Assembly (NCBI RefSeq): GCF_000507185.2
Contig: NZ_AYTM02000002.1
Span: forward strand, 519,501-583,500
Reading direction: 5' to 3'
Origin: Pseudomonas syringae KCTC 12500
GTDB lineage: Bacteria; Pseudomonadota; Gammaproteobacteria; Pseudomonadales; Pseudomonadaceae
Length of the DNA: 64,000 nt
The notes below the pieces were generated by a model. That model worked only from the letters and a program-made list of their open reading frames with translations, ran no database searches and was not told the origin of the DNA. Both the position numbers and the translations under genes were made by a program. Positions 12,312 to 35,676 of the stretch are shown here, in pieces. The number at the start of each line of letters is the position of its first letter. Position 1 is the stretch's first letter.

Positions 12312-12935
12312 CTAGCGATTCAATACTGACACCTTCCATTCTTTGTATTGATGAAGCATTTCGCTCGTCGCTATGACGCGCCGCATCGAATCCTTGCTGA
12401 CCAGCGCACCTCCTTCTAGTAGCAAAAATTCTTGAAACTCCTTGAGAAGATTTTCGACAAAGCAATAAGCATCTGAAACGGGCGCAGCGCTGCGACTCTC
12501 CACGGTCAGACTACCGTTTTCGCCCTGGTTCAGCTCAGCCTCAACCTCACGAAGCTTTTCTTTTAGCGAGTGAATGTAACTACAGGCTTCAGAGTATTTT
12601 AAAAAATAATCGTACTTTCCAAGATCATCTGATGATGTAAGTGAATTTTTTCGCCACCACTCATCTAAGTAGCTACGATAAAGGCTGCCTCGTCTTAGAA
12701 ACGTTTGATAGTGAACTGTTCTAGAGGAAGTTTTAATTTCTTCCAACCCAGAAAGCTCCTTGACTTCCGCCATTGAGACCATCTCACTATCTTGAACACG
12801 CAGCGCTATATATTTTGCAAGATCACTTATAAACTCAAACCTCATTCTTAACTGCGAGGCGTCGGCCAGCGCATGCTTAACTACCTCCTTACGTTTTAAT
12901 ACGGAATTCATTCTAGCTTGGTAATTCCTATTCAT
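12312..12935 (-). CDS. Small helical protein of recombinase trio (GmtX/TnpC-like)
   Basis: A 207-residue, strongly helical protein, last gene of the three-gene minus-strand operon. Its ATG lies inside the end of the preceding 1114-residue gene (8-bp overlap, TTATGAATAG), so the two are translationally coupled. Residues 60-95 contain a segment (TSSRTVHYQTFLRRGSLYR) resembling the winged-helix part of DUF6262/TnpC-like accessory proteins, and residues 110-135 form a coiled coil. In Tn554-like elements and Gamma-Mobile-Trio islands a third small protein of this size assists the recombinases. That role here is inferred from position and size. Confidence 0.6.
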   Translation of the reverse strand: MNRNYQARMNSVLKRKEVVKHALADASQLRMRFEFISDLAKYIALRVQDSEMVSMAEVKELSGLEEIKTSSRTVHYQTFLRRGSLYRSYLDEWWRKNSLTSSDDLGKYDYFLKYSEACSYIHSLKEKLREVEAELNQGENGSLTVESRSAAPVSDAYCFVENLLKEFQEFLLLEGGALVSKDSMRRVIATSEMLHQYKEWKVSVLNR

Positions 12936-15900: not shown

Positions 15901-16272
15901 AGAAAACTCATACGGCAACATCAAAACCCCTGCCTTATGCAACCCCGCTAGTAAATATTTAAGAGCAGGTAGCAGCGACTTAATAGCGTCTTGACCTGGG
16001 GATTTGTAGCCTAGAAATTCAAATAGTTTGTTTACATTACTGTTTGCCGCCTTTCCGCTCAGGCATGCTCCTAATATCAAACTCAAAAAAACGTCTAGGT
16101 CTGACGAGCGCAGTACCATGCCAGATATATAAGCCAAAAATGGATGTTTTTTACGGCCACCTGCAAAAAGCTGCGGGACAAGACCTGTAGTTTTTTGTAT
16201 TAAGTCTTTGGTAGACTTCAAAACAAATTCCTGATCTTTCAAATAGATTAATTTATTACTTCTATTTATCAC
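12928..16272 (-). CDS. Large recombinase-like protein of trio (GmtZ-like)
   Basis: A 1114-residue protein beginning at a GTG (16272) with GGAG five to six bases upstream; the ORF is in operon with the 466-residue recombinase (30-bp gap). Around residues 730-770 it has a tyrosine-recombinase-like active-site stretch: PHSGRVTHITLL in place of the usual HxLRH, then TTGQSADMTDYYDRGE in place of the LGH...Y box. A CSWCPYAIF motif about 130 residues further on looks like a zinc knuckle. The N-terminal 600 residues are unlike normal integrases. The order 466-residue recombinase, very large second protein, small third protein matches GmtY-GmtZ-GmtX. Whether the atypical site is active is unknown. Confidence 0.6.
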   Translation of the reverse strand: MINRSNKLIYLKDQEFVLKSTKDLIQKTTGLVPQLFAGGRKKHPFLAYISGMVLRSSDLDVFLSLILGACLSGKAANSNVNKLFEFLGYKSPGQDAIKSLLPALKYLLAGLHKAGVLMLPYEFSRPLSTWIGELKDSDSCYSEVILAFRSLDTEKWPDPSRGGSYSAEEKTNRRLFTTATKVAFASGWVVPEDITASDILAWRDIKVVESRDGGTHQTTPIPMNDLLDFLQNTFGERLRFNVSKVRLEINTTIRVAPHSVVEYLPRIFENTTSPLAVIDELLASPLRGMASFSSKDISEYDIVSALLSLGVDISNSYSCWLEAQKLFMRFQQYTNEKSWGTLFGRFNMYVFIYLPLWFNSNPESNIEYPDTPSKFEGALFYEGIQGPSPDRPLTLVQFYEYAGFTYSATVARNARTFFDHLVKMHILIGDEKPVKQPVHRTPRETSPDKTVKHALSRPLENLFHKYLLAKQSQAEFINENVEIVWAEIRKKVRSVGRRVFEIDLRELGSVVEVHHENHSYPVSKFHVESLLFTSYEDQIYFNPATYVFPFCLLRGGFRGQNLQWLDADTYDSMSEPSNRHARELDWCWVNTDKIQKKAFCAYVRPSVMNMLDIQRDWRDHLLELGCDAFSKRVNYEGKKGTRWGQIKCLFANNVRSGAPISDKVYTNLWVYTLLDFQNWLKFNGLAAETFVAYMPVKTGSNSRRTSFNWNDWEKKDFPLSSVKIDTKDHPDGAVPFCPVNLRAKITPHSGRVTHITLLREHADAASVCLTTGQSADMTDYYDRGEVSLIRKLEGVLNKNDSGWQLTGPTLPSAQAKNISDKILQAQVHGSVQNLIDDFSLLSLPHPDPARSGEEGIHIIAREKSSSLGVANTHLCSLNMNCSADVVSILGGKFRCSWCPYAIFSTDLIFEVSAKRHYLAEELYRVTRKLDDYRTTKRVAAAEMEMLSQTTKTMAEDVLGWYVVEKTLDMFIRNKQKNLNSASYLVSDREKALMEITNHVVRTDSVEAFMYRFEQVCDNPLTMSEDFRDKINRGVRYLLAQSGDVTAAVMYASTVSPEMKLAALMRERASFGGIEIESLVKFINMPQEEWSTAVLSQRSEDECNSDFVKELLGYE

Positions 16273-16302
16273 GACATCTCCAAAGCCAGATGACCCGGCT
16301 AA

Positions 16303-17703
16303 TCAGGCAGCAGCTTTCTCGTTTGCAACTTCATTCATCGTCAGATCATATTCTCTTTCAAGAAAACCTAACTTAAGCTCGTTAAAACTTTTCGAAAAGT
16401 CATCTGCCCTAACAAATGCAAATGCAATCTTAAGTTCTAATAGATAACGCATCATAACGGCGTAACGCTCGACGGCTTTGTCAGTTTTTTGCCCCGTTAA
16501 CGCTTTGATCTCACTATTTCGCAAGCCAACCCCCTCAGTATGTTCCACAAAGTTTTTAAAGAACACACAGAAGCTATGCCTTAGGCTATGAGGCGTGTAG
16601 CTAAAACGTTCAAATTCAGTATTAGCCAATACGCGTCGAGACGACTGCCTAAAGGGTTCGAAAACCACACTACTGTAGTCAGAAAAGCATAGAGGATCAC
16701 CATTACCAGTCTGAAAAATAAAATTGTGATAGGTCGGTTTATATTCATGCTTGAGATACAATGAATAATACTTAAAAAACATCGATCCATAAGGTTCAAG
16801 TAAAAGGGTGTGCTCCGTTGTGCGCCCCTTCCATGCCAGTTTATTGAAGCTTACTTCGTCTATCCCTCGGTAAGACTTGGAACAACGAGCGCTGGAGCGC
16901 GGACCTCTGGCATAGACTTTTCGATTTTGGATATCCACATCTTCCAAGAGGAACTGCATAGCTTCGGAAACGCGTATTGAGGTCGCGGCAAGAAGTGCCC
17001 ACAAGGCGGAATTTCGATACGACGTTGCGCTCTCAATTAATGCAGCTATCTTATGGAGGGGAAAGAAGCTTTCTTTCGTAATTGGCGCATCTGAAAAATC
17101 TAGTGTAGGCACATGGCCCAGGAGGCTATTGGAATTTTTTCGATTGGGATAAGGACCATGATTGTGCCGAGATATCCACTTTCCGGCATTGTCGAGCAGT
17201 GCTGCCGCAGGGACGAGACTGAGTGCAAGAAAATCATCCACTTTTTTATCATGCTTTAAATTGTCTGACTCTAGGACTTGCTCCTCAGCATGATGGTCTC
17301 GGACGCTTTGAATGAATCTATTAATAGCAGCGTGATAGAGAGCTGCGGATCGAGGAGAGACAGTAGCTCTTGGTTTTACTATTGATATTTTCTGAACAGC
17401 GGAATCGTTAGAGTCTTCACCATGAACTAAATAACTGTAATATTCGCGAACAAGCAATGTTGCAGCCTGAGGAGTTATTTCGCCTTGAACTTCGAAACCA
17501 ACGACTAGATAGTCCAATAGCTGTGAAACTGCATAAGCGTATGTACGACGAGTGTTGTATTTGAACTTATTCAGCACAAGTGCTTCCATGAAGGAGCGGA
17601 ATGCTAGATTCTCCTCACCATCAGCCCCATACATTAAAAATGACTCATGCCCGCAATAAACGGTGGAGCGCATCTGAAATCTGACCAAACCTGGTTTTTT
17701 CAT
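16303..17703 (-). CDS. Tyrosine recombinase, first gene of trio (GmtY-like)
   Basis: A 466-residue site-specific recombinase. The N-terminal SAM-like core-binding region spans about residues 35-140; the catalytic domain follows with Arg244 in SIRVSEAMQ, HSLRH at 372-376 (His372, Arg375), a GQK at 404-406 where most relatives have GH, and the nucleophile Tyr414 in VERYAV. It should cut and rejoin the element ends. It is the first gene of the operon and starts at an ATG after an A-rich stretch with only a weak RBS. Integrases of prophages are usually 330-400 residues, so the extra length agrees with trio-type enzymes. Confidence 0.75.
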   Translation of the reverse strand: MKKPGLVRFQMRSTVYCGHESFLMYGADGEENLAFRSFMEALVLNKFKYNTRRTYAYAVSQLLDYLVVGFEVQGEITPQAATLLVREYYSYLVHGEDSNDSAVQKISIVKPRATVSPRSAALYHAAINRFIQSVRDHHAEEQVLESDNLKHDKKVDDFLALSLVPAAALLDNAGKWISRHNHGPYPNRKNSNSLLGHVPTLDFSDAPITKESFFPLHKIAALIESATSYRNSALWALLAATSIRVSEAMQFLLEDVDIQNRKVYARGPRSSARCSKSYRGIDEVSFNKLAWKGRTTEHTLLLEPYGSMFFKYYSLYLKHEYKPTYHNFIFQTGNGDPLCFSDYSSVVFEPFRQSSRRVLANTEFERFSYTPHSLRHSFCVFFKNFVEHTEGVGLRNSEIKALTGQKTDKAVERYAVMMRYLLELKIAFAFVRADDFSKSFNELKLGFLEREYDLTMNEVANEKAAA

Positions 17704-20345: not shown

Positions 20346-20455
20346 CACGTGCTTGCAGATATCAAAATGCCAGCCTATGCTATCTGGTTTAGGTGGGCGA
20401 CTATCCTCGCACGTCCGTTTGCGACACCATGGATTCTAAAGCATAGGGATTGAAG

Positions 20456-21529
20456 ATGGCGGATGGCTACGATGAGGGCCAGATGGCCTCAGACTGCGTG
20501 CTCGATAACGAGATCGTCAACGTTATTGTTCATACCGTGAGTAAAAGCGACGGCGGCTTCGTCGTCGATGATCGAAAAGAAGTGTTGGAGGTCGGCGAGA
20601 CCGTCCAGCGTCTGATTGATCAGCTGGCGAAAGTCTATGCGGCCAAAACTGGTAAGTCGCACGGCCGTTTTGAAGAGGACACTGATAATTACCCGGTGTC
20701 TAAATTTTTAGAAAGCTACTTTCAAGCCAGTACCAGCGACTTCGTAACTACGACCCTACACATGGTGCAGAGCTTAAGAAAGTCGGTGCAAGGTACAGCG
20801 TCTACTGGTGGCCACGTATTTTTCGCCCATTTCAGACGCACCTCTGACAAAACTGACTTTTTCATCGTTACTATTTTGAACGATGAGCTAGGTGCTGCAC
20901 TCAACAAGTCCAAGGAAGTGGTGGACGCTCTGCACCTTGATATCAAAGGCTTCCGTTTGGCTGGGCGAGTGAATCTGACCAACTGGGCTGAGGGCGGCGA
21001 CAAGTACCTGAGCTTCATTAAAGGGCGCGGACAAGATAAAGTCTCAGACTTCTTCAAGCTGTTTTTGGGGTGCAATAACTCTGTGGCCGCTGTATTGGAG
21101 ACCCAAAAAATTGGAAAAGCCCTAGAGCAATTTTCCCAGTCCAAAGAGATGAGCGAAGAGCAGCGCGAAGAGTTCCTTAGGAACGCCTACTCTATATGCA
21201 AGCGCTACGCAGACAAGGACGTACCATTCGAAGTTAATGCGTTTACAAATGAGCTGTGGCCGGAGTCGCCTGAGGACTTGAGCGGCTTGTTTGAAAGCTC
21301 TGGGCTGGACATTTCGGATGGATTCATTCCGGATAAGCGCTCGCTGCGCAGCCTTATTAAATTCACTGGTGGTTCTAAGAACTGGCGCATAACTTTTGAC
21401 CGTGCAGCCCTCAGTAATGGGGAGATCGAGTTCGACCTGGAGTCTGAGGCACTTGTTATAAAGCAACTGCCGACAGAATTGCTTGCACGCTTAAGAATGG
21501 AAGTTAGTCAAGATGGTAAAGAGGATTAA
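20456..21529 (+). CDS. Nucleoid-associated protein, NdpA/YejK family
   Basis: About 357 residues, matching the 37-kDa nucleoid-associated protein family (PF04245) over its length: FEEDTDNYPVSKFLESYF, STGGHVFFAHFRR, then LDIKGFRLAGRVNLTNW and SFIKGRGQDKVSDFF with FLGC. I prefer ATG 20456, with AGGG about eight bases upstream, over a TTG two codons earlier. The next gene starts 17 bp before this one ends, so they are coupled. Housekeeping copies of this family are solitary chromosomal genes; an island copy tied to a membrane protein is unusual and suggests a two-gene unit. Function beyond DNA association is unknown. Confidence 0.8.
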   Translation: MADGYDEGQMASDCVLDNEIVNVIVHTVSKSDGGFVVDDRKEVLEVGETVQRLIDQLAKVYAAKTGKSHGRFEEDTDNYPVSKFLESYFQASTSDFVTTTLHMVQSLRKSVQGTASTGGHVFFAHFRRTSDKTDFFIVTILNDELGAALNKSKEVVDALHLDIKGFRLAGRVNLTNWAEGGDKYLSFIKGRGQDKVSDFFKLFLGCNNSVAAVLETQKIGKALEQFSQSKEMSEEQREEFLRNAYSICKRYADKDVPFEVNAFTNELWPESPEDLSGLFESSGLDISDGFIPDKRSLRSLIKFTGGSKNWRITFDRAALSNGEIEFDLESEALVIKQLPTELLARLRMEVSQDGKED

Positions 21530-22697
21530 GTTTTCTGATCTGGTTCCTATCTACAGGGCGGTTGAGAGTACCGCAGGTGGCAAACACAGCATCAGAGTGA
21601 CAAATGAATTGTTGCGGGACTCCCTCGTGCAGGCGGTGGATGAGCAAAACGCCGACGAATCAGGTATCACTGTTCTTCAGGGAGACTATAACCACATTAG
21701 CGTGGGTGATGCCTTCGTATTGGATGTTTCACAGCCTCGCGTTGGCCTGGGCATCCTAGCCCCCAATTTCGCAACCTATGTGACGGCCACGACTGGCGCG
21801 CGCGTGAAAGAAAGGGACAACTATTACTTACTCGCAGAGCGTTTTTGCTCAACTGATCAGCCTGCGCTCGTGGTCGTCAATCGGTACCGCCAGGTACTAC
21901 GCTTGGTCAGGCTGCTAGTCGATTCAGCACATTACCTAGACACGCAAAAGGAAGAACTTATTTTCTATAAGGACGGGCGCTTTCTCGTACCGGTCATTTA
22001 CGGTGAGGAAGAAGTAAATTTCCTGAATATCTCAGCATTCGAGCGGCTAGAGAATTTTGTACTGGATCACTATCATCATGAGCAGAAAGTACAAATGCTG
22101 GGTGATAATCTGATCGAGATGTTGGCGTTGACTCCGGAAAAGGAACGCTTCTCTTATTTGGTCAAAAATTTAAGCGAGCTACATCAGCGCATGCAGGCAA
22201 GTTATAATATATTTGCCTCTGATTACACCTACGATAAAGCGATTGCCGAAGTTCATACGTTCAAAGTCGACGCTATTACTAAGGCACACAAAGCCATTTC
22301 CGACATTCAGGCTCAAGTACTCGGCATACCAATAGCGACATTTATTGCCCTTAGTCAGTTAAAAGTAACTTATTACTTGAATGCGCAGTTTGCAGCCAAC
22401 ACCGCAATTTTTGCTGGAGTGATAATTTTTTGCATTTTGCTTGTGGGGTTTCTCGTCAACCAACATGCGACATTACGTACGATAAAATCCGAGGTAAACC
22501 GGCAGCGAAAAATTTTCGAAAAACGTTTTGAAGGTAACCAAGCCGCATACTCAGAAGAACTAAATTCGATTGATAATAGAATATGGTGGCAGTTCTTCGC
22601 TATAGGAACTATTTTTGTACTGGATGCTGCGATGTTGTGTTGGTGCGCTATCTATTATGTGGTTCATACTCGTCCAATTTTTAACTGGCTGTTCTGA
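21513..22697 (+). CDS. Membrane protein paired with the NdpA-like gene
   Basis: A 394-residue protein whose ATG lies 17 bp inside the preceding NdpA-like gene. About 250 soluble N-terminal residues (mixed alpha/beta to about 160) are followed by a helical region (190-290). Transmembrane helices then lie at about 308-330 (NTAIFAGVIIFCILLVGFLV) and 363-385, with a charged coiled-coil loop of about 35 residues between them. I recognise no family. The arrangement, a soluble sensor-like part with two C-terminal membrane helices next to a DNA-associated protein, is reminiscent of abortive-infection pairs in which one subunit senses and the other damages the membrane, but that is inference. Confidence 0.6.
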   Translation: MVKRIKFSDLVPIYRAVESTAGGKHSIRVTNELLRDSLVQAVDEQNADESGITVLQGDYNHISVGDAFVLDVSQPRVGLGILAPNFATYVTATTGARVKERDNYYLLAERFCSTDQPALVVVNRYRQVLRLVRLLVDSAHYLDTQKEELIFYKDGRFLVPVIYGEEEVNFLNISAFERLENFVLDHYHHEQKVQMLGDNLIEMLALTPEKERFSYLVKNLSELHQRMQASYNIFASDYTYDKAIAEVHTFKVDAITKAHKAISDIQAQVLGIPIATFIALSQLKVTYYLNAQFAANTAIFAGVIIFCILLVGFLVNQHATLRTIKSEVNRQRKIFEKRFEGNQAAYSEELNSIDNRIWWQFFAIGTIFVLDAAMLCWCAIYYVVHTRPIFNWLF

Positions 22698-24113: not shown

Positions 24114-24986
24114 TCAGTACGCGTTCGCTGGAAGGCGGTTGCGAATCAAGCGATAGCCTTCTACACAGAACCAATCCGAGTCTCTCAGCCCTTCATGCAA
24201 CGCTGTTCTCCACGAATTTGAGTCTCGCGCCTGGCATGACTGAAACTGGATCTCTAAATGCTGGCGAACCCCATCGGGCCCTGCTGCGGCGCCTAATAAT
24301 TCCAGCCCATAAGACATATCGGCCAGTTCACTAGCAGCTTGGGCGACATATAGCTCAGCTAAGCCCATCACGGCGAAATGATTTATTACTCGCGCTGTGA
24401 GCACCTCATCCCAAGCTCTCGCGGCGCGAATATCAAATGACACTGTAGGAGGAGTAGAGGGTTGGATATCAGCAATTAGCCAGCGCTCATTGCCGAGGTC
24501 ATCGAAGTATGGGTGTAGAGTCTGATCCTCCGCCTTTGTAGGAACGCTGGCCAGCTTACGTTTGTTGCAGTCCGAGCAGGCGGGAATAAGGTTGGCAGGC
24601 GTGAGATTGAGCGCAGGAAAACGAGACTGGGGGAGATAGTGGTCAACCGTCGCGACAATTCGTTGCCCGCATAGCGGGCAGAGGCCGAATTCAGGAGCCA
24701 TCCTGATACGGTCATAGAAAGTCCGTGACAGCGTGCCCTGACGCGCAAAATGACTTTTATAGATAACGCCCATGAGTGCAGCATCAATCGCTGGGGTCAC
24801 ACCGAGGCTTGGGAGTATCCGGTATAGCTGGCCGGGAGGGCCAAGCTCCAGATACTCGGCTTCGCATCTCTGTATCGTCGGTAGAGCTTCAGTGAGAGCT
24901 TGGGCACGTTGAGGGATGGTAATACCCTCAACACAGGCGTGAACCGTATCAGTCGCATGCATAGCGGGTGGTCGAAGTCTTTTCAT
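24114..24986 (-). CDS. ptuB: HNH endonuclease, Septu PtuB-like
   Basis: A 290-residue protein with an HNH/zinc-finger nuclease core: CPLC at 103-106, VDHYLP at 114-119 with the catalytic His, and ACSDCNKRK at 136-144. Its ATG overlaps the stop of the ATPase gene by one base (TGATG), so the two proteins are made together. In the Septu defence system PtuB is an HNH nuclease that assembles with the PtuA ATPase and cuts phage or tRNA/DNA targets when triggered. Size and order match Septu. Retron-linked versions also exist, but no reverse transcriptase is near. Confidence 0.75.
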   Translation of the reverse strand: MKRLRPPAMHATDTVHACVEGITIPQRAQALTEALPTIQRCEAEYLELGPPGQLYRILPSLGVTPAIDAALMGVIYKSHFARQGTLSRTFYDRIRMAPEFGLCPLCGQRIVATVDHYLPQSRFPALNLTPANLIPACSDCNKRKLASVPTKAEDQTLHPYFDDLGNERWLIADIQPSTPPTVSFDIRAARAWDEVLTARVINHFAVMGLAELYVAQAASELADMSYGLELLGAAAGPDGVRQHLEIQFQSCQARDSNSWRTALHEGLRDSDWFCVEGYRLIRNRLPANAY

Positions 24987-26551
24987 CAGTTGCCCCTACC
25001 CGCGACCAAACTCCGTGCCAGCGCTTGCGCTTCTACCCCTAGCTGACCTCCAAAGTGATGGTCAACGCCCGCATAGGTAATACCGGGTCGTCGAGCAGCA
25101 GCAGCTACCAGCTTATGGAAGCCAGATTGACTTACTTCCAGGCCGAATACCTCCCGAGTCAGTACCCCTGCGCTCTCCCCAAACGTTTCAATAGAAGGCC
25201 GCTCAACCGTAGATTGGGTGCGCGTCCTGCGGAGCATCCAAACGCAGCTTCGGGGGACCTCCTGTAACACCACAGGTGAGTGAGTCGAAAGCAGAGCAAC
25301 GCCATTTCGTGCTACCAACAGATCGGCGACTGTACGTATGAATGCAGCGAGCAAAGGCGGATGCAGATGCCCCTCAGGCTCGTCTAAAACGACCAGAGTT
25401 CGCTCATCCACCAACTCGACGAGGCGCGTCGCAGTGAGCAGCACTATTGCATGGCCAGAGCTTAACAAACCGAAAAAGCGGGTTGCTCGCTCTTTCCATT
25501 CAAAACCGCCTTCGATCAGCTGCTCCACGCCTGTTTCGCCAAAAAGCGGGTCCGTAGACAGCGTTGCCACAGCGGTGAGCCAGCGTGAGCGACGAGGTTC
25601 GGCTTGGCAGCGCTCAAGGCTTGCAACGAAATCCTGAGCCAGATCAGCAGCGCTCTTGAGCACATCGACAACATTTCCTTGGTCGTCTGTTCTCTGAGAC
25701 CGCAGCCCTACAAAAGTCGCTGGCGTTCGCTGGAATGCAATAGATGGCAGTTCGAACGAGTCGAAAGCGCTAAAGGATACAGAGACCAAGCCTGAGAAGG
25801 TCCACTCGTCTTGATTCACACCGAGCCGCTGCAAAATCCCCCTAGGTGCACCTTGGCTATCCCGTTCCAATAGTGTGTTGATGATGCCCTGAATACATCG
25901 TGTTTTGCCAACGCCGTTGCGCCCCACCAGAACATGCAGGTTCGTTGGAGGCACAGCATCTGGGATGACCTGGAATTGCATTACGGCGGGTGCCAGCGGC
26001 GGTAGCCCGTTCGCCTCCGCAGGTGCTGACGGGAAAGTGTACTGAAACTCGAACCGAGTCAACTCGGGGTTTCCATGCGCGAGTCGATTCAAACGGTTTC
26101 GAACGTTGGGTTCATGGATGGATCGCAAGATCGACTCAGACATAACCAGCTCAGCCAGATGTCGCTCAAGGATCTCAAGGTTGAAGGCACAGTCGCACAG
26201 TGCTCTTAGAATCGTGATGCCCAGGCCATTGGGTAAAGATCGAAGTGTCGAGTAGTAGTCTTCATCTTGGCCAAGGGAAAAGAACTGGCGCTCATCCAGC
26301 TCAACAAAGGCGTTGGGAATCCCTGGGGTCCGGTTGCCGGGAGGAATATCTGCACCGGCAGGAGCGGGAAGCAAGCCTGCTTGGCCTATTTTAACGGAAC
26401 CCACCCTGTGGCGAATGGAGCGAACATCAAACACGAACAGCGTGAACATCGTCCGAAACTTAAACCAGTCATCCCAATGATCGACGACCAAGTAAGCGCA
26501 GTTCGTCCCATGCTGAGGTAGCTGCTGCCCTGCGCCCAATACAGTAAACAT
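24986..26551 (-). CDS. ptuA: AAA/ABC ATPase, Septu PtuA-like
   Basis: A 521-residue ATPase. Walker A GRNGVGKT is at 210-217, a LLSSGHAIV signature at 362-370, Walker B TLVVLDEPEGHLHP at 385-398 and the switch His in STHSP at 422-426. The long N-terminal 200 residues before the P-loop are a feature of PtuA. It starts at an ATG with GAGG about nine bases upstream and directly precedes the HNH gene. PtuA binds ATP as the sensor of the Septu complex and keeps PtuB silent until ATP falls. All nucleotide-binding motifs look intact. Confidence 0.75.
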   Translation of the reverse strand: MFTVLGAGQQLPQHGTNCAYLVVDHWDDWFKFRTMFTLFVFDVRSIRHRVGSVKIGQAGLLPAPAGADIPPGNRTPGIPNAFVELDERQFFSLGQDEDYYSTLRSLPNGLGITILRALCDCAFNLEILERHLAELVMSESILRSIHEPNVRNRLNRLAHGNPELTRFEFQYTFPSAPAEANGLPPLAPAVMQFQVIPDAVPPTNLHVLVGRNGVGKTRCIQGIINTLLERDSQGAPRGILQRLGVNQDEWTFSGLVSVSFSAFDSFELPSIAFQRTPATFVGLRSQRTDDQGNVVDVLKSAADLAQDFVASLERCQAEPRRSRWLTAVATLSTDPLFGETGVEQLIEGGFEWKERATRFFGLLSSGHAIVLLTATRLVELVDERTLVVLDEPEGHLHPPLLAAFIRTVADLLVARNGVALLSTHSPVVLQEVPRSCVWMLRRTRTQSTVERPSIETFGESAGVLTREVFGLEVSQSGFHKLVAAAARRPGITYAGVDHHFGGQLGVEAQALARSLVAGRGN

Positions 26552-28123: not shown

Positions 28124-29323
28124 GTGCTTAACCCTCTTTCATGCGAGCTTGCGACAGGCAGAGAACAGAAAGCTCAGAGTTCACAAGCGCACTCATCCGA
28201 CTTAATGAAATCCAGCTCCGAATGTATTAATAATACTGCCATCGATTCATTCCAGGCCAAATCTGTTGAGTTTTCGCCCACTCAGACAAGTACTGTTTAT
28301 CTTCCGCAAACACGGTATTACGGAAGTAAACGCAGGCTCGCTCAGTGGATGTTTAGTGAATTCACTAAATATAATTTCAATACCGCACTAGATGTGTTCG
28401 GTGGCACATCCACAGTTTCCCTAGCCTTAAAACATCTGAGAAAAAAAGTAACTTACAATGACTTATTAGAGTCAAATAGGATTATTGCAACAGCACTGAT
28501 GTCAAACGAGCCTTGTGCAACTACACACCTAGACTTAAACAATTTTTTTGAGACGGTACAACCCCTACATGGTTTTATATCAAAAAACTATGAAGGAATA
28601 TATTATACAAACTCCGAAAACATGTGGCTTGATGGTGCAGTCGAAGCATTAGGAAAAATCGAAAATCTTCTTCAGAAGGCAGAAATTCTATATTGCTTGA
28701 TGCAAGCTTGCCTGCAAAAAAGACCTTTCAATCTCTTCCATAGAAAAAATCTTTACTTAAGAGAAAACAACGAAAAGAACACAAAGTTCGGGAACTGGGC
28801 GACGTGGGAAAGACCTTTTTCGGTATTGATGAGTCGTGCGCTGAGCGAAATACATAAAACCAGATGGGCTTCGGAGCTAACACCTACCATTCTCCCATGC
28901 ACTGACGCAATCGATATACCGTCAGGGTACGATTTTGTTTATTTAGATCCACCTTATGTGCCAATAAAAAAACAAGATATTTCATACATGGACAGATATC
29001 ATTTTCTTGAGGGAATATGCATGCCTGAAAAATGGAGCGAAATGATTGATCTTTCAAAACGAAATCATCCGATTCCTAGCCCGGAAAGCATGCTCAAATG
29101 GACCGACAAGAAGCATTTTAAAGAAAATCTTTTTATGCTAGTTGAGAAACATAAAAAGTCGATTGTTTGCCTTTCTTACGTTCATGGTGCTTTTCCCGAA
29201 ATTGAAACTATATTTAAATTTTTCCAGACTCAGTTCAAAGGTGTGACCTTACTTGAGCATGACATGCCACACGCATTGAGCAGAACACCTAAAAAAGAAG
29301 TTATCGTTATAGGTACGCCATAA
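28124..29323 (+). CDS. D12-class N6-adenine DNA methyltransferase
   Basis: About 399 residues from a GTG at 28124 with GGAG seven bases upstream; longer starts at 28004 (TTG) and 28061 (ATG) are possible. In GTG numbering, TRYYGSKRRL at 63-72 and DVFGGTSTVS at 90-99 form the AdoMet-binding motif, and YLDPPY at 273-278 is the catalytic motif IV, the order of MethyltransfD12/Dam-like enzymes. The first 60 residues are low in conservation. No restriction enzyme gene adjoins. The stop overlaps the next ATG (TAATG), so it is first gene of a coupled four-gene operon. Base use is A+T-rich compared with core genes. Confidence 0.8.
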   Translation: MLNPLSCELATGREQKAQSSQAHSSDLMKSSSECINNTAIDSFQAKSVEFSPTQTSTVYLPQTRYYGSKRRLAQWMFSEFTKYNFNTALDVFGGTSTVSLALKHLRKKVTYNDLLESNRIIATALMSNEPCATTHLDLNNFFETVQPLHGFISKNYEGIYYTNSENMWLDGAVEALGKIENLLQKAEILYCLMQACLQKRPFNLFHRKNLYLRENNEKNTKFGNWATWERPFSVLMSRALSEIHKTRWASELTPTILPCTDAIDIPSGYDFVYLDPPYVPIKKQDISYMDRYHFLEGICMPEKWSEMIDLSKRNHPIPSPESMLKWTDKKHFKENLFMLVEKHKKSIVCLSYVHGAFPEIETIFKFFQTQFKGVTLLEHDMPHALSRTPKKEVIVIGTP

Positions 29324-30048
29324 TGGACATGTTGAAATTAAACTTTGTCGTGCAAGCACCTCGCATATATCTTGGGTTTCTCATCGCGCTGACGTTGACC
29401 TTAATGGTAATTCTGATGTATGCCGATCCAGCTGCGGACAGTCGATGGGTTGGCGTTTTAAGCGGGTTGGTGTCTGGTATTGGCATCGCTGCGCTCCAGT
29501 TTTTCACACAATATCTTGAGCAAAAGAGACTTGCTGAATATAAAAAGCACGGTCTTGTTGAGTTTCTCACAAATCGAAAAGACCCTGAGTATTATCGACA
29601 GCTGATCAAGACAACGAAGGTAAGCGACAAGATCATTGTCGTAGGCGTTACCTGCAATAGGTTGCTAGATGACTTTGCAAACCCAGATGTATACGAATCC
29701 CAAGACCTTTTAGAAGCGCTGGCCAGAGGAGTTGAAGTTACATTACTCGTCCCAAAATCCAAGTATTTAGATGATGACGATCGCGCAGACTTTACACATA
29801 AAACTCTTCCGAAATCTTCAAAAATCTCACAACAATATCCTGAACTATTTAAAATAAAATACTATGATTTCGAGCCCTCCCATAGCATATTCTTAGCAGG
29901 CTCCAACTGCGTGGTCGGACCTATATTTAAAAACAAGAAAAGCAAAGATACTCCGGCAATCAACTTTAACAAGGACGGCTTATATACTAGACTATATCTC
30001 GAACATATCAATGAGACCTTAGCCAAAGCGACCACTGACCATGTTTAA
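29323..30048 (+). CDS. Two-TM protein with PLD-like domain
   Basis: A 241-residue protein. Two membrane helices lie at about 15-33 and 42-62, then a short coiled-coil neck, then a soluble domain from about 100: KIIVVGVTCNRLLDDF, a GVEVTLLVPK strand, and HSIFLAGSNCVVGPIF at 187-202, which resembles one degenerate HKD half of the phospholipase D superfamily. A full HKD (HxK...D) is not present, so catalysis is doubtful or the site is altered. The start overlaps the methyltransferase stop by one base and its end overlaps the GHMP gene by 8 bp. It could be the membrane effector of the operon. Identification is tentative. Confidence 0.55.
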   Translation: MDMLKLNFVVQAPRIYLGFLIALTLTLMVILMYADPAADSRWVGVLSGLVSGIGIAALQFFTQYLEQKRLAEYKKHGLVEFLTNRKDPEYYRQLIKTTKVSDKIIVVGVTCNRLLDDFANPDVYESQDLLEALARGVEVTLLVPKSKYLDDDDRADFTHKTLPKSSKISQQYPELFKIKYYDFEPSHSIFLAGSNCVVGPIFKNKKSKDTPAINFNKDGLYTRLYLEHINETLAKATTDHV

Positions 30049-31024
30049 AAAAATAAAAATATCTGCACCTGCTCGAATACACGTAAATTTATTCGACATG
30101 AGCAACAACGGCTATAGGCAAAACGGCGGGATAGGTTTTTGTCTCAATGGGTTGGACACAGTGATTGAGTTCTATCCCGACCACGAGTTTCAAATCATTG
30201 ACAATCGTTCGATCCCTTATACCAATGAAGAAGAGAAGCTCCTTACCGCGTTCTTGCAACAGATGTATGCTTCGCGTCAATTTCGACAAAAAATGAAGAT
30301 AACCTTTCAAGCGGGTCCTCCTCCCCATAGCGGATTTGGCACGGGGACTGCGACGAAATTAGCTTGTGCTGAAGCTGCAAGCATCCTTAACGATACCAGA
30401 CCTGATCAAGCAGAGTTAATAGCTGCATCGGGTCGAGGTGGCACCTCAGGCGTAGGTATTAGTACCTATTTCAAAGGAGGTTTGAATGTTGATCTTGGGG
30501 TGAAACAAGCAGGGTTAGCATTGGGCCCGTCTTCGGCGAGACAAGGACCAAAAAAGCCACCTGTCAGTCTAATCAATATCCATCTCCCGGAAAGTTGGTT
30601 TATCGGCGTCATAATTCTTCTAAACGAAAAGCGTATATCCTCAGATGAGGAAAAATATTTTTTTAATAAAACATGCCCTATAGATTCTGTTTCAGTTCAC
30701 GGATCAATGTACCAAGCGTTATCAGGCCTTGCCTGCGCGGCTATCGAAAATGACATCTTTACTTTTTGCTCTGCGATCAATGCGACCCAAACCTCTCAAT
30801 GGAAGATGGCGGAATGGATGACACAATCAAGTGACATCAGAAGCTTGAGAAATGATCTACACAAGGCAGGCGCTTCATGCATCGGCCTGTCGAGCTTGGG
30901 GCCTGCAATCTACTTCATGGCGCCAAATATCGATGATTTAGTAGGAAAACTAAACATCATGGATGATCATATCTTCGTTAAATCTTCACCAAACAACTCA
31001 GGCCGAGTAGTAGAAATTGATTAA
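30041..31024 (+). CDS. GHMP-family kinase, beta-RFAP synthase-like
   Basis: A 327-residue protein of the GHMP fold. APARIHVNLFDM at 9-20 and GGIGF at 29-33 match the N-terminus of the archaeal beta-ribofuranosylaminobenzene 5'-phosphate synthase branch; PPHSGFGTGTATKLA at 94-108 is the ATP-binding P-x3-G-x-G-T motif, and GRGGTSGVGI at 131-140 the second conserved loop. GHMP enzymes phosphorylate small alcohols; this branch acts on ribose or pterin-like substrates. The substrate here is unknown. It overlaps both neighbours by 8 bp, so the four proteins are made together. It is far from any pterin or cell-wall pathway genes. Confidence 0.75.
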   Translation: MFKKIKISAPARIHVNLFDMSNNGYRQNGGIGFCLNGLDTVIEFYPDHEFQIIDNRSIPYTNEEEKLLTAFLQQMYASRQFRQKMKITFQAGPPPHSGFGTGTATKLACAEAASILNDTRPDQAELIAASGRGGTSGVGISTYFKGGLNVDLGVKQAGLALGPSSARQGPKKPPVSLINIHLPESWFIGVIILLNEKRISSDEEKYFFNKTCPIDSVSVHGSMYQALSGLACAAIENDIFTFCSAINATQTSQWKMAEWMTQSSDIRSLRNDLHKAGASCIGLSSLGPAIYFMAPNIDDLVGKLNIMDDHIFVKSSPNNSGRVVEID

Positions 31025-32702
31025 AATCGTCTTCCTCTCATCCAACTTAACGAAGATAGCACACTTTGAATATCTGCTACGTGAGCAGCCAATTCTGCTA
31101 CTGCCGCCGCCTAACTATGGAAAACCTTACGATGAGCCTCGGATTGAAGATAGAGACACTCTTCTTAAAAAAAGCATCCAAAGTGCAAATTTAAGGTTAG
31201 CTAAAACGTTAAGTGGTAATGACGAGGGACGTCAACCAGCCTTCTTTACAGACACAGAGAGTGAAGCTGAAAACGCCAATGAAAATACCTCTTTACTGGC
31301 ACGCTTTGTCTCTAGGCATCAGCATAAGATTTTTTTTATCGAAGACACTTCCATTGCGATTGAAGCACTGAGTACGGAGCGAGAGTTCCCTGGAGTAGAC
31401 GTAAAATACTGGATGCGAGAAACTTCCTTCTCAGATCTCGACAATCGACTAAAAGAGCTTGGAAATAACAGAAAGGTAATAGTGCGCTCTGATATAGTTT
31501 TGTATCTTCCGCCCAACCTTCGTAGCGCACCCGACGAAACTTATAAGATTTTTGTTGGAAAGTCTGAAGGTACTATAGTAGATATTGAAGTACCGTTTGA
31601 GACCAATAAATTATATCCTTGGCTGGACAACAAGACGTTCAATAAATGGTTTGTACCCAAAGGTGCGAAAAAACCTATAAGCCAGCTATCTTTGAACTCC
31701 AGCCTAAAGTACGACTTTAGAAATCTGGCACTACAACAACTTATTGAGTTCCTGAAAGAAAAAGATCTCCTCGAAGCTAAACATCTGTATGAAAAACCAC
31801 TACAGGGTGAACTTTTTCCAAGACGCAATTATATAATTTGCGGGGCAACTTGTGCTGGCAAAACTGTCCTCGCTACTGCCCTAGCTAGGCTGCATGCTTA
31901 CCGACATATCGAAGCTAGCGACTTTATGCGGTGCGCGCTTTATACTCGGCATGGCTATTCAAGTACAATGAAAATCCAAGATTTTGCTAAAGATGCCTTA
32001 AAAAAAGATCCTGGTATTGTCGCCCGGCAGATCTCTCAGTATGTTAAAAACTCATCCACCACGGGGCTAGTAATAACCGGCTTCCGCTCTCCTCAAGAAA
32101 TTCAGATTTTACGGGAAGAACTGTCAGGAATTGATCTAGAGGTATTATATATTGATAGTAGCTTGAATATAAGATTTCAAAGAAATAAAACAAGAAACAG
32201 ATCTGATGCCCTTATTAGCATTTCAGATTTTGAAAGAAAAAATGAAACACAGAACTCTATGGGGCTGGATGGCATTCGCCAGCTCGCGAAAATTATATCT
32301 AATGAGCAATCATTATTCAGATACATAAAAGACACCGTTAGCACCCTAACCAACAATGCACAGCTAATTCCTTTTAATTGCGATATTTCAAAGATGGTAG
32401 ATTTCCTACCTCTTGAGCAAGCACTCCTAGTCTCTATGTTGATTGACAACAGAAAAAGATCACCAGCACTTACTACTACCCAAATTGCGAATAATGCACG
32501 TGCAAACATTCCTAACCTTCGCAAAAAAGGCAAGAAAACACTAGCCGTAGATAAAAACAATGTGAGCAGATTCTTTAATCAACGTTTCAGCCCTCATTTC
32601 GAAGCAAAATTTGAAAACGGAAAATATTATTACAGCCTATCGCACACAGGAATAAGTGCAGCTCTATCTCTCATCAGGAGGCTGGCTAATGAGACACCTT
32701 AA
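31017..32702 (+). CDS. Ham1-like NTP pyrophosphatase fused to P-loop nucleotide kinase
   Basis: A 561-residue fusion. Residues 1-250 follow the Ham1/RdgB fold: IVFLSSNLTKI at the N-terminus, FFIEDTSIAIEAL at 106-118 and FPGVDVKYW at 124-132. Such enzymes hydrolyse non-canonical purine NTPs. Residues 270-420 are a P-loop kinase: Walker A GATCAGKT at 276-283, ITGFRSPQEIQILR at 353-366 and an Arg-rich lid, resembling the kinase-like domain found in dephospho-CoA kinase relatives and in phage-defence deoxycytidylate deaminases. The end (450-561) looks like a winged helix. It starts at a TTG (31017) inside the GHMP gene. I have seen no standard housekeeping protein with this architecture. Confidence 0.7.
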   Translation: MIKIVFLSSNLTKIAHFEYLLREQPILLLPPPNYGKPYDEPRIEDRDTLLKKSIQSANLRLAKTLSGNDEGRQPAFFTDTESEAENANENTSLLARFVSRHQHKIFFIEDTSIAIEALSTEREFPGVDVKYWMRETSFSDLDNRLKELGNNRKVIVRSDIVLYLPPNLRSAPDETYKIFVGKSEGTIVDIEVPFETNKLYPWLDNKTFNKWFVPKGAKKPISQLSLNSSLKYDFRNLALQQLIEFLKEKDLLEAKHLYEKPLQGELFPRRNYIICGATCAGKTVLATALARLHAYRHIEASDFMRCALYTRHGYSSTMKIQDFAKDALKKDPGIVARQISQYVKNSSTTGLVITGFRSPQEIQILREELSGIDLEVLYIDSSLNIRFQRNKTRNRSDALISISDFERKNETQNSMGLDGIRQLAKIISNEQSLFRYIKDTVSTLTNNAQLIPFNCDISKMVDFLPLEQALLVSMLIDNRKRSPALTTTQIANNARANIPNLRKKGKKTLAVDKNNVSRFFNQRFSPHFEAKFENGKYYYSLSHTGISAALSLIRRLANETP

Positions 32703-32740
32703 AGGAGCGTAGTCATGAAATTTTATGGCTACGACATGTT

Positions 32741-34657: not shown

Positions 34658-34920
34658 ACCTCAGTACGCCCCAACGCGCCTAGCTGATCTAGGCGAGCGG
34701 ACTAGGACGCTGACCGTGGTACGTAGGCATCTCTAGACGAAAGCATCCGTACGAAGCTGTAAGGCGTGCAGAAAACTACAGGGATGTGAGTCAGCCAGAC
34801 ATTATTGGAAACGGACGTTTCGCGATGGCAATCTGGCCTGGCAGGGGCGGCAGAAAAGGTTCCGTGGGGTAAAAAATTACAGGCCTGTAACCTAAAGTCG
34901 ATCACTCGCCGGAAGGGTAT

Positions 34921-34992
34921 TGCTCTCTGCTGGAGTCGAACCAGCATCTAACCCTTAGGAGGGGCTTGTTCTATCCATTGAACTAAGAGAGC
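34921..34992 (-). tRNA. tRNA-Arg(CCT), carried by the element
   Basis: A full cloverleaf: acceptor GCTCTCT/AGAGAGC, D stem GTTC/GAAC, anticodon loop CTCCTAA (anticodon CCT), T stem GCTGG/CCAGC. The 3' CCA is not encoded, unlike most tRNA genes here. It lies 310 bp inside the right end of the mobile element, whose insertion destroyed the native tRNA-Arg(CCT), so it is a candidate replacement for reading AGG codons. Confidence 0.9.
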
Positions 34993-35134
34993 ACATGCGC
35001 AGACATTTTCCGGTTTTCAGGCGCAGCTATCAAGCATTTTTCAAATTTATCATTGGCTTACACTCCTCATCAGACTCAGTCTCCTGCCTTGAGCTGTCTG
35101 AAGCGGTCTTCCTCTGCGGATGGTGAAGCAAAAA

Positions 35135-35209
35135 TGGTGTCCCTTGCTGGATTCGAACCAGCATCTAACCCTTAGAAGGGGTCTGTTCTATCCCTTGAAC
35201 TAAAAGGAC
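35135..35209 (-). tRNA. tRNA-Arg(TCT), carried by the element
   Basis: A full cloverleaf with encoded CCA: acceptor GTCCTTT/AAGGGAC (one G-U pair), D stem GTTC/GAAC, anticodon loop CTTCTAA (anticodon TCT), T stem GCTGG/CCAGC. It is closely similar to the CCT copy at 34921, so the two probably arose by duplication. It lies inside the mobile element, 93 bp from its right end. Confidence 0.9.
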
Positions 35210-35291
35210 ATGGCATCACTAGGGCTTCGCTTTATCGGTGGTTAGGTCCACTGCAAAGTAGAAGCAGTGCAGGGTTGCGCACCCAATACGT

Positions 35292-35308
35292 ACCACAGAT
35301 AAGAACCT
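35292..35308 (+). repeat. Right end of mobile element: 11-bp inverted end plus 6-bp direct repeat
   Basis: ACCACAGATAA (35292-35302) is the exact reverse complement of the left end, followed by GAACCT (35303-35308), the same six bases that precede the left end. Confidence 0.8.
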
Positions 35309-35359
35309 GCAACCTTCCCCTTAGGAGGGGGATGCTCTATCCAATTGAGCTACTGAGAC
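35303..35359 (-). pseudogene. 5' part of the split tRNA-Arg(CCT)
   Basis: From 35359 the minus strand reads GTCTCAG, a D arm, anticodon arm TCCCC-CTCCTAA-GGGGA (anticodon CCT), variable loop, T-stem GCAGG and TTC, then leaves tRNA sequence at the element end. The 3' remainder is at 11706-11731. The rejoined T stem has one A-C mismatch (GCAGG vs CCCGC; G expected), which fits drift after inactivation. Confidence 0.8.
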
Positions 35360-35676
35360 ACTGCGTGCCGACACACCGATCGGTGCCAGCGAGGACGGCG
35401 TGCATCTTAGCGGCATGTGGCGCTTTTGTCATGTCGTCATTGCCCTTCGACCCTGTAGCCGATGTCGCCTGGAAACACGGTCTCATAAACTGATCATGCA
35501 ATTTGCAATACCCCAAAAAGCCATCATTGCAAAACGCACTGTAGAGCACTTTTTTTAATTTAATAAGCCATTGATTTTAAAGGATTTTTTATCATTTTCT
35601 GATTGGCATGCAGACTGCATTATTGATATCTGTGGAACACATCTCATCCCAAACGGTCGGGCACAGGTACTGGAAA
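35360..35676. other. Intergenic region at the core/island junction
   Basis: About 320 bases between the broken tRNA and the first core gene. It holds the former tRNA promoter. I see no gene; short frames here have no recognisable family. Confidence 0.4.

What the first reader, a model, noticed from the sequence alone, without database searches (positions are those of the whole stretch)
28124..32702. Candidate new system: methyltransferase, membrane PLD-like protein, GHMP kinase and Ham1-kinase fusion in one coupled operon
Four genes overlap by 1-8 bp: D12 adenine methyltransferase, a two-TM PLD-like protein, a GHMP kinase of the beta-RFAP synthase branch, and an NTP pyrophosphatase fused to a P-loop kinase. 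It is A+T-rich cargo in a defence-laden element. Two nucleotide/sugar-phosphate enzymes next to a DNA modifier and a membrane effector suggest either nucleotide-pool control or a small-molecule signal during infection. I know of no named system with this set.
Basis: partly seen in the sequence, partly recalled or inferred. Interest (0 to 1): 0.9.

Follow-up and report, generated by a model that had tools for sequence, protein, structure and literature searches.

The report
Mobile four-gene nucleotide-and-methylase cassette
Four tightly joined bacterial genes, found together in very different bacteria, look like an unnamed, horizontally spreading (possibly anti-virus) system built around an enzyme of the kind that makes unusual "C-nucleotides", which would be a new idea in bacterial immunity if it is proved.

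Summary
The operon is real: four + strand genes at 28124-32702 overlap by 1, 8 and 8 bp. They encode a D12 adenine-DNA methyltransferase (MT), a two-TM protein with a degenerate PLD fold (PLD), a ForT/RFAP-synthase-like enzyme (RFAP), and a Ham1 / AdkA-like kinase fusion with a winged-helix-like C-terminus (HAMK). RFAP keeps the PRPP-binding residues of the C-nucleotide synthase ForT, so it is probably not a kinase. The set is a conserved unit: of 26 genome loci found through HAMK, 26 have RFAP beside it, 22 have all four genes, 21 of those in the same order. It is rare: 3 of 398 genomes of the genus. PADLOC, Pfam and NCBIfam do not name the set, and six literature searches aimed at it showed no description. 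Best model, largely inferred: RFAP makes a non-canonical C-nucleotide, HAMK phosphorylates and reads or erases it, the membrane pseudo-PLD is the effector, MT marks self DNA. Nearest precedent: Kongming, whose KomBC complex contains a Ham1-fold chain. Defence function and chemistry are untested; defence-island association is suggestive only.

The parts
28124..29323 (+). MT: D12-class N6-adenine DNA methyltransferase, first gene (GTG 28124; the frame is open from TTG 28004)
   Evidence: PF02086 E 1.7e-12; DPPY, TRYYGSKR and KRPFNLFHR motifs in the alignment of 23; start-site sequence
29323..30048 (+). PLD: two N-terminal TM helices plus a degenerate (pseudo-)PLD domain, about aa 78-240
30041..31024 (+). 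RFAP: beta-RFAP synthase/ForT-like, predicted PRPP-dependent C-glycoside synthase (GHMP fold)
   Evidence: TIGR00144 124.8 bits, cut-off 113.5; ForT 6yqq E 2.7e-20, profile 1e-60; PRPP and catalytic residues conserved in 143 sequences
31017..32702 (+). HAMK: Ham1 - NMP-kinase-like - winged-helix-like fusion, 561 aa, TTG start
   Evidence: PF01725 9.7e-15, PF13207 6e-07; model pLDDT 79.7, pTM 0.55; relatives
31017..31766 (+). HAMK aa 1-250: Ham1/ITPase domain, EDT and PG...K motifs kept, SHR motif changed to DFR
31824..32360 (+). HAMK aa 270-448: P-loop kinase domain like AdkA/UPF0200
32412..32693 (+). HAMK aa 466-559: winged-helix-like C-terminal region (inferred from predicted helices and a two-strand wing)
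   Evidence: DSSP of model H487-497, H513-522, E528-533, E536-541, H543-559; N515, R518 and F520 each in 142 of 143, one gap; fold search did not cover this region
32708..32733 (+). terminator-like hairpin 5 bp after the HAMK stop
   Evidence: 11-pair stem; consensus scan only, 8 such sites found in the region against 5.0 (sd 2.5) in shuffles

Best explanation
A self-contained, horizontally moving four-gene cassette, most likely anti-phage, that works through a non-canonical C-nucleotide. Steps: (1) MT methylates adenines in a host target (activity inferred from intact motifs) so that self DNA is marked. (2) RFAP joins PRPP to an aromatic carboxylic acid (p-aminobenzoate or 4-hydroxybenzoate are the obvious cellular candidates), releasing CO2 and PPi, to give an aryl C-ribonucleotide 5'-phosphate (chemistry inferred from conserved residues; substrate not shown). 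(3) The AdkA-like kinase domain of HAMK raises it to a higher phosphate, and the Ham1 domain, whose base-recognition motif has changed, reads or destroys the triphosphate; the winged-helix-like region ties this to DNA, either sensing unmodified DNA or repressing the operon (inferred). (4) The compound, or HAMK loaded with it, acts on the membrane pseudo-PLD protein, which stops growth or kills the infected cell (inferred).
For: Unit: RFAP next to HAMK in 26 of 26 loci (loci were chosen by HAMK); all four genes in 22 of 26; order MT-PLD-RFAP-HAMK in 21 of these 22; all four present on two Rhizobium plasmids among unrelated neighbours, and on Cupriavidus replicon L032. Mirror-tree r 0.49-0.81, 0 of 2000 permutations reaching it for each of 6 gene pairs. 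8-bp RFAP/HAMK overlap in 18 of 26 loci. RFAP: residues matching ForT R135, S139, E211, K263 identical in 143 of 143 sequences and R19 in 129 of 129 letters (14 gaps); H99 in 141 of 143; T106 T in 126 and S in 17; S174 in 142 of 143; RFAP-synthase R26 (pABA binding, passages of PMC6787355) corresponds to R26, 142 of 143. HAMK: Walker-A K282 143 of 143, E109/D110 142 of 143 with one gap; Ham1 fold shared with a chain of the dITP-KomBC complex. PLD: best fold matches TrmBL2 (a chromatin protein) and TrmB (sugar-binding domain) as well as PLD nucleases; HKD degenerate. The own genome holds a chorismate lyase (PF04345, 156.5 bits), so 4-hydroxybenzoate should be available. In L004 and L014 an MT stump and an alternative TM-PLD replace MT-PLD while RFAP-HAMK stay; in L016 MT and PLD are lost together. 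Rare and patchy: 3 of 398, 2 of 398 and 1 of 395 genomes, each count including the genome searched from.
Against: No biochemistry and no phage test. Defence context is uneven: 12 of 40 scanned neighbours hit PADLOC at E<=1e-10, of which 3 are the generic AAA_14/DUF4143 family and 2 are marginal; no background rate was measured; Rhizobium and Cupriavidus copies lie among genes that look metabolic. Copies with broken or missing MT and PLD but open RFAP-HAMK also fit simple decay. The Ham1 residues look catalytic, so it may only clean pools. The aromatic-binding positions differ from ForT (S21 to H14, Q266 to E258), so the substrate is open. Mirror-trees also rise from shared descent. Many loci are MAG contigs.
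Confidence: 0.35

Rival explanations
1. Antiviral nucleotide rather than signal: RFAP and the kinase make a C-nucleoside triphosphate that poisons phage polymerases, and the Ham1 domain keeps it off the host's pool; PLD and MT limit toxicity or localise the process.
For: Same enzyme evidence; ForT makes a C-nucleotide on the way to formycin A 5'-phosphate (PMC8183095, parts 1 and 2 of 3 read).
Against: Does not explain a conserved DNA methyltransferase and a membrane pseudo-PLD; no exporter or heterocycle-forming family among the four proteins.
Confidence: 0.17
2. Nucleotide-pool control: HAMK hydrolyses or rephosphorylates phage-modified or deaminated (d)NTPs, MT is an orphan methylase, RFAP a scavenging enzyme.
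For: Ham1 catalytic residues and Walker A kept; inosine triphosphate pyrophosphatases are house-cleaning enzymes (start of abstract of PMC9016069 in the listing).
Against: A predicted C-glycoside synthase next to HAMK in 26 of 26 loci is unexplained; the SHR motif is DFR, D and R in 143 of 143 and F in 141.
Confidence: 0.14
3. Restriction-modification-like or DNA-hypermodification system: MT marks DNA, the PLD-fold protein cuts unmarked DNA, or the C-ribosyl product is used to modify DNA.
Against: HKD lysine absent in 143 of 143, GS changed to GP in 143 of 143; the protein has TM helices; a variant without a whole MT exists (L004, L014).
Confidence: 0.13
4. A small metabolic or cofactor pathway (methanopterin-like or a C-nucleoside natural product), unrelated to defence.
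For: RFAP subfamily membership; Methylomonas, Methylobacter and Methylovulum among the hosts (methanotrophs, recalled); Rhizobium copies lie beside ABC-transport operons.
Against: Rare and patchy; the methanopterin-type equivalog cut-off is not met (168.7 of 328 bits); a DNA methyltransferase and pseudo-PLD do not fit; apart from the four core families no neighbour family is shared by more than 4 of the 27 regions compared (26 loci and the window).
Confidence: 0.14
5. Chance neighbours carried together on islands.
For: The island holds many unrelated cargo genes.
Against: Same set and order in distant bacteria, with window HAMK only 42-47% identical to its three nearest members of the 22 four-gene loci.
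Confidence: 0.01

Closest known systems
ForT (C-nucleotide synthase of formycin biosynthesis) and archaeal beta-RFAP synthase
   Same: RFAP shares the family (E 2.7e-20 by sequence, 1e-60 by profile to ForT), the PRPP-binding loop and catalytic residues
   Different: Two aromatic-binding positions differ; here fixed beside a DNA methyltransferase, a membrane pseudo-PLD and HAMK, and below the methanopterin equivalog cut-off
Kongming (KomABC)
   Different: No deaminase- or SIR2-like domain among the four proteins (that KomA is a deaminase and KomC a SIR2 protein is recalled); the Ham1 domain is fused to a kinase; the nucleotide would be a C-nucleotide
Restriction-modification and BREX-type systems
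   Same: Adenine methyltransferase in a mobile operon
   Different: No restriction enzyme family found among the four proteins; BREX core genes recalled, none seen
TrmB/TrmBL2 and FAM83 PLD-fold domains
   Same: PLD fold; that these lack HKD catalysis is recalled
   Different: Two TM helices instead of an HTH or scaffold region
NadR-type kinase-regulator fusions (recalled, not searched)
   Same: Nucleotide kinase fused to a DNA-binding region
   Different: Ham1 instead of an adenylyltransferase

Membership tests
beta-RFAP synthase family | NCBIfam subfamily cut-off TIGR00144 (113.5 bits) | tested here: met
   124.8 bits
beta-RFAP synthase of methanopterin synthesis | equivalog cut-off NF040726 (328 bits) | tested here: not met
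   168.7 bits
ForT-type C-nucleotide synthase | PRPP-binding R19, H99, T106, R135, S139 | tested here: met
   R12, H96, T103, R132, S136, conserved in the 143-sequence alignment (T103 is S in 17, H96 is N in 2)
ForT-type C-nucleotide synthase | aromatic-acid contacts S21, Q266, S174, E211, K263 | tested here: inconclusive
   S164, E204, K255 kept; S21 is H14 and Q266 is E258
ForT-type C-nucleotide synthase | PRPP-dependent C-C bond formation | not testable with these tools
   needs an enzyme assay
Ham1/ITPase | Pfam gathering score PF01725 (22.5 bits) and fold | tested here: met
Ham1/ITPase | SHR base-recognition motif (function recalled; SHR seen in the aligned PH1917, MJ0226 and TM0159) | tested here: not met
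   D233 and R235 in 143 of 143, F234 in 141
D12 adenine methyltransferase | PF02086 cut-off (22 bits) and DPPY motif | tested here: met
   48.1 bits; D315, P317, Y318 invariant in 23
PLD/HKD phosphodiesterase | HxK(x)4D(x)6GS motif (recalled) | tested here: not met
   lysine position F/I/L/M/V and GP instead of GS in 143 of 143; H kept in 139
PLD/HKD phosphodiesterase | PLD fold | tested here: met
Kongming | Ham1-fold nucleotide receptor | tested here: met
Kongming | KomA (deaminase, recalled) and KomC (SIR2, recalled) partners | tested here: not met
   no such family in the four proteins
Type II restriction-modification | cognate restriction endonuclease in the operon | tested here: not met
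   no endonuclease family among the four; PLD motif degenerate
Anti-phage defence system | protects against phage | not testable with these tools
   needs a plating experiment
Gamma-mobile-trio element (for the surrounding island) | GmtY cut-off NF040693 (340 bits) | tested here: not met
   22.3 bits

The most novel reading that the evidence does not exclude
A new class of bacterial immunity that makes its own unnatural base: an aryl or heteroaryl C-nucleotide, built from PRPP and an aromatic acid, serves as immune signal, with one protein carrying its kinase, its Ham1 reader/eraser and a DNA-binding region, a membrane pseudo-PLD as receptor-effector and a DNA methylase as the self mark. In some Bacteroidota/Chlorobi copies a fifth gene may be a divergent chorismate-lyase-like enzyme that supplies the aromatic acid.
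Probability: 0.27. Interest if true: 0.95.

Novelty: categorically new. Interest (0 to 1): 0.8.

Why it matters
If right, it would add a signal chemistry to immune nucleotides that I did not see reported in the listings of the searches made here: a C-C-bonded nucleotide instead of cyclic, ADP-ribose or dITP signals. It would give bacterial 'beta-RFAP synthase' genes of this kind a role, show what a Ham1-kinase fusion is for, and offer a source of new C-nucleotide enzymes. Even if the defence role fails, a rare, order-conserved set joining a predicted C-glycoside synthase to a DNA methylase is unexplained biochemistry that can be tested directly.

Tried and rejected
Rejected: methanopterin synthesis (equivalog cut-off missed; hosts such as Pseudomonas and Rhizobium); active HKD phosphodiesterase (motif lost); Kongming membership (no KomA- or KomC-like domain); gamma-mobile-trio membership of the island, although the 466/1114/207-aa trio at 12312-17703 has that look (the look is recalled; GmtY 22.3 of 340 bits); chance linkage.

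Inconclusive: fam4, a 164-182-aa gene in 4 of 26 loci (L002, L005, L007, L015), looked to me like a chorismate lyase (invariant R29 and E131 in the four; the matching catalytic R and E of UbiC are recalled). HHalign local scores: 16.5 against 24 UbiC proteins (24 of 26 loci gave one), 23.0 against one DUF98 protein, seven negative controls 9.4-15.4, the UbiC-DUF98 comparison 27.2; all probabilities were low (0.57 and 5.6 for fam4). A global alignment of fam4 to UbiC gave nothing (score 1.28), and HMM searches in both directions gave no significant cross-match. Pfam gave nothing for the two members scanned, L002 and L015; PF04345 and PF01947 gave nothing over the cut-offs in the four genomes. 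The L010 genome, whose cassette lacks fam4, has a PF01947 match over the cut-off elsewhere (E 1.8e-9, with a stop); 0 of 198 genomes of the phylum of the L007 genome had one at E<=1e-6. So unproved.

No match in 50,697 phage records at E<=1e-5; one IMG/VR contig holds a HAMK fragment. PADLOC census: 40 of the 45 nearest neighbours of at least 250 aa (list) were scanned; left out were L019 upstream, L020 and L024 downstream, L025 and L026 upstream; no background control. The PDB sequence search with the MT alignment found nothing at E<=0.01, with the PLD alignment nothing convincing at E<=1. The fold search of HAMK did not test the C-terminal region (note), so 'winged helix' rests on predicted secondary structure.

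Literature: ten searches; six were aimed at the gene set and four at ForT, Kongming, Ham1/dITP and the gamma-mobile-trio. One search held no paper; the other five held more papers than, or as many as, were listed (93, 29, 16, 1,807 and 230 held; 20, 20, 16, 20 and 15 listed), so absence is judged on the listed titles and abstract starts only. Term look-ups in PMC12419801, PMC10853773, PMC12839542 and PMC12458937 showed one GHMP kinase mention (isoprenoid context) and nothing on this set. Subscription papers and most preprints are not held.
Full report
What is there. MT can start at GTG 28124, with GGAG six bases upstream, and ends at 29323; PLD 29323-30048, RFAP 30041-31024, HAMK 31017-32702; overlaps 1, 8 and 8 bp. 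A terminator-like hairpin follows at 32708-32733 (a consensus match, such sites are not clearly above shuffles). GC is 40-43% here and about 60% in the right half of the window. The window lies in a 6.15 Mb genome; the closest named relatives of HAMK and RFAP are Pseudomonas (P0001, 86% identity; P0122, 68%).

Unit of selection. Profile A1 of HAMK found 26 loci in a collection with one genome per species (60 stretches matched a peptide pattern, 26 were confirmed, so the list is not exhaustive): gamma-, beta- and alphaproteobacteria, Bacteroidota, and MAGs labelled Chlorobiaceae, Stygiobacter and Oligoflexus. HAMK is present by construction. RFAP is next to it in 26 of 26; a whole MT in 22 and PLD in 23 (L018 recovered by tblastn; L023 begins inside MT at the contig end; HAMK of L026 is cut by the contig end). 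All four occur in 22, and in 21 of these the order is MT-PLD-RFAP-HAMK; in L005 MT follows HAMK. RFAP and HAMK overlap by exactly 8 bp in 18 of 26 loci, the others by 0 to 13. Distances of the four families over 23 members (22 loci and the window) correlate with r 0.49-0.81, and 0 of 2000 permutations reached the observed value for each of six pairs; shared descent contributes to this. Window HAMK is only 42-47% identical to its three nearest members of that set. Two Rhizobium plasmids carry the four genes among unrelated metabolic genes; in one of them (L031) a further gene, DUF5677-like below its cut-off, overlaps the end of HAMK. Of two Cupriavidus replicons, L032 has all four, and in L034 HAMK matches over 76% only and was not recovered as one open frame.

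Rarity and mobility. HAMK occurs in 3 of 398 genomes of the genus, 2 of 398 of the phylum (both counts include the own genome), 8 of 251 of the order of the L014 genome (seven or more of them hosts of loci already known or new to this list were not sorted apart) and 1 of 395 of the class of the L007 genome (the one is that genome itself). The two other Pseudomonas-genus copies (L037, L038) lie in different surroundings, share about 67% of DNA over the operon, and L037 has RFAP split into two frames. No phage record matched; one IMG/VR contig (L030) has a HAMK fragment near genes that look to me like phage structural genes.

RFAP. It passes the beta-RFAP subfamily cut-off but not that of the equivalog. 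The best solved relative is ForT with bound PRPP (profile E 1e-60). I read parts 1 and 2 of 3 of PMC8183095 and passages of PMC9832568 and PMC6787355. Mapped through the alignment, the PRPP ligands R19, H99, T106, R135 and S139 are R12, H96, T103, R132 and S136 here; in 143 sequences (window, 22 loci, 120 database proteins, some of them near-duplicates) they are R in 129 with 14 gaps, H in 141, T in 126 and S in 17, R in 143 and S in 143. ForT S174, E211 and K263 correspond to S164 (142), E204 (143) and K255 (143); S21 is H14 and Q266 is E258 (142). RFAP-synthase R26, needed for pABA binding, corresponds to R26 (142 of 143). So PRPP chemistry is well supported and the second substrate is open. 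ForT shares the GHMP kinase fold but does other chemistry; 'kinase' is therefore probably a wrong label.

PLD. The model (pLDDT 90.2) has two TM helices and a PLD fold; VIA-align ranks TrmBL2 (14.4), SauUSI (13.3), FAM83B (13.2) and TrmB (12.9), values mostly too close to separate. The lysine position of HKD is hydrophobic in 143 of 143 and GS is GP in 143 of 143; histidine remains in 139. R85, Y91, G108, F118 and G199 are invariant. This suggests a ligand-binding or scaffold domain, not an HKD enzyme. The search for relatives returned 128 proteins; the 120 listed are 224-244 aa and, where named, hypothetical (candidates longer than 1.75 times the query cannot appear).

Module swaps. L003 and L004 are 90.8% identical in DNA over RFAP-HAMK and 89% in the upstream flank, but L004 has a stump of MT followed by another TM-PLD-like protein, present intact in L014 and with one stop in L004; it lacks the HKD histidine. 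In the order sampled it occurs in these two genomes only (2 of 251 at E<=1e-10). L016 is 92% identical to L019 from the end of PLD onward and has lost MT and nearly all of PLD. MT and PLD thus go or change together while RFAP and HAMK stay open in L004 and L016; HAMK is split in L014. With three cases this hints that MT restrains what PLD does, and does not exclude plain decay.

Defence context. In the window: a PDC-M01/PtuA-like pair 24114-26551, a PDC-S06-like ATPase 8536-11187, a DS1-like gene 21513-22697 far below its cut-off (51 of 315 bits), a resolvase and a tyrosine recombinase, and tRNA-Arg genes at 34920-35361. Elsewhere, of 45 nearest neighbours of at least 250 aa I scanned 40, from 23 loci: 12 hit PADLOC at E<=1e-10. 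Seven, at six loci, are strong (type I or IIG restriction-modification genes at L001, L002 and twice at L015; RTasSbcB at L019; PDC-M29A at L020; SoFic at L022), three are AAA_14/DUF4143 proteins (a common family, recalled) and two are marginal (L012 RecD-like, L017 HIT). An AbiV-family gene lies about 165 bp after HAMK in L012. No background was measured, so I claim examples, not enrichment.

Verdict. A real four-gene unit, unnamed as far as these libraries and the listed papers show; the C-nucleotide model explains the enzymes best, but no step of it has been measured.

Noticed in passing
L004:8125-9013 and L014:7827-8968: Truncated MT followed by an alternative TM plus PLD-like protein in place of MT-PLD, with RFAP-HAMK kept: a possible second subtype.
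   Followed up: partly
L002:7770-8306, L005:7770-8318, L007:7800-8294, L015:7775-8299: A fifth gene of 164-182 aa beside PLD in Bacteroidota/Chlorobi copies, possibly a divergent chorismate-lyase fold; evidence inconclusive.
   Followed up: partly
window 12312-17703: Three-gene recombinase-like module (466-aa tyrosine recombinase, 1114 aa, 207 aa) that resembles in layout the gamma-mobile-trio (recalled) but misses its GmtY cut-off.
   Followed up: partly
window 24114-26551: HNH plus AAA ATPase pair matching PDC-M01A/B and one PtuA model strongly.
   Followed up: no
window 20450-22697: NA37 nucleoid-associated-like gene overlapping a gene with a below-cut-off match to the DS1_2 anti-phage family.
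   Followed up: no
L030:2230-2940: HAMK fragment (query residues 335-559) on an IMG/VR contig beside genes that look phage-structural.
   Followed up: no
L015:3885-12745: The cassette sits between hsdR-like and hsdM-like genes, i.e. apparently inside a type I restriction-modification locus.
   Followed up: no
L031:9199-13611 and L033:9199-13611: Two Rhizobium plasmids carry the cassette next to the same kind of ABC-transport/arabinofuranosidase operon but in opposite orientation to it, suggesting an insertion hot spot.
   Followed up: no
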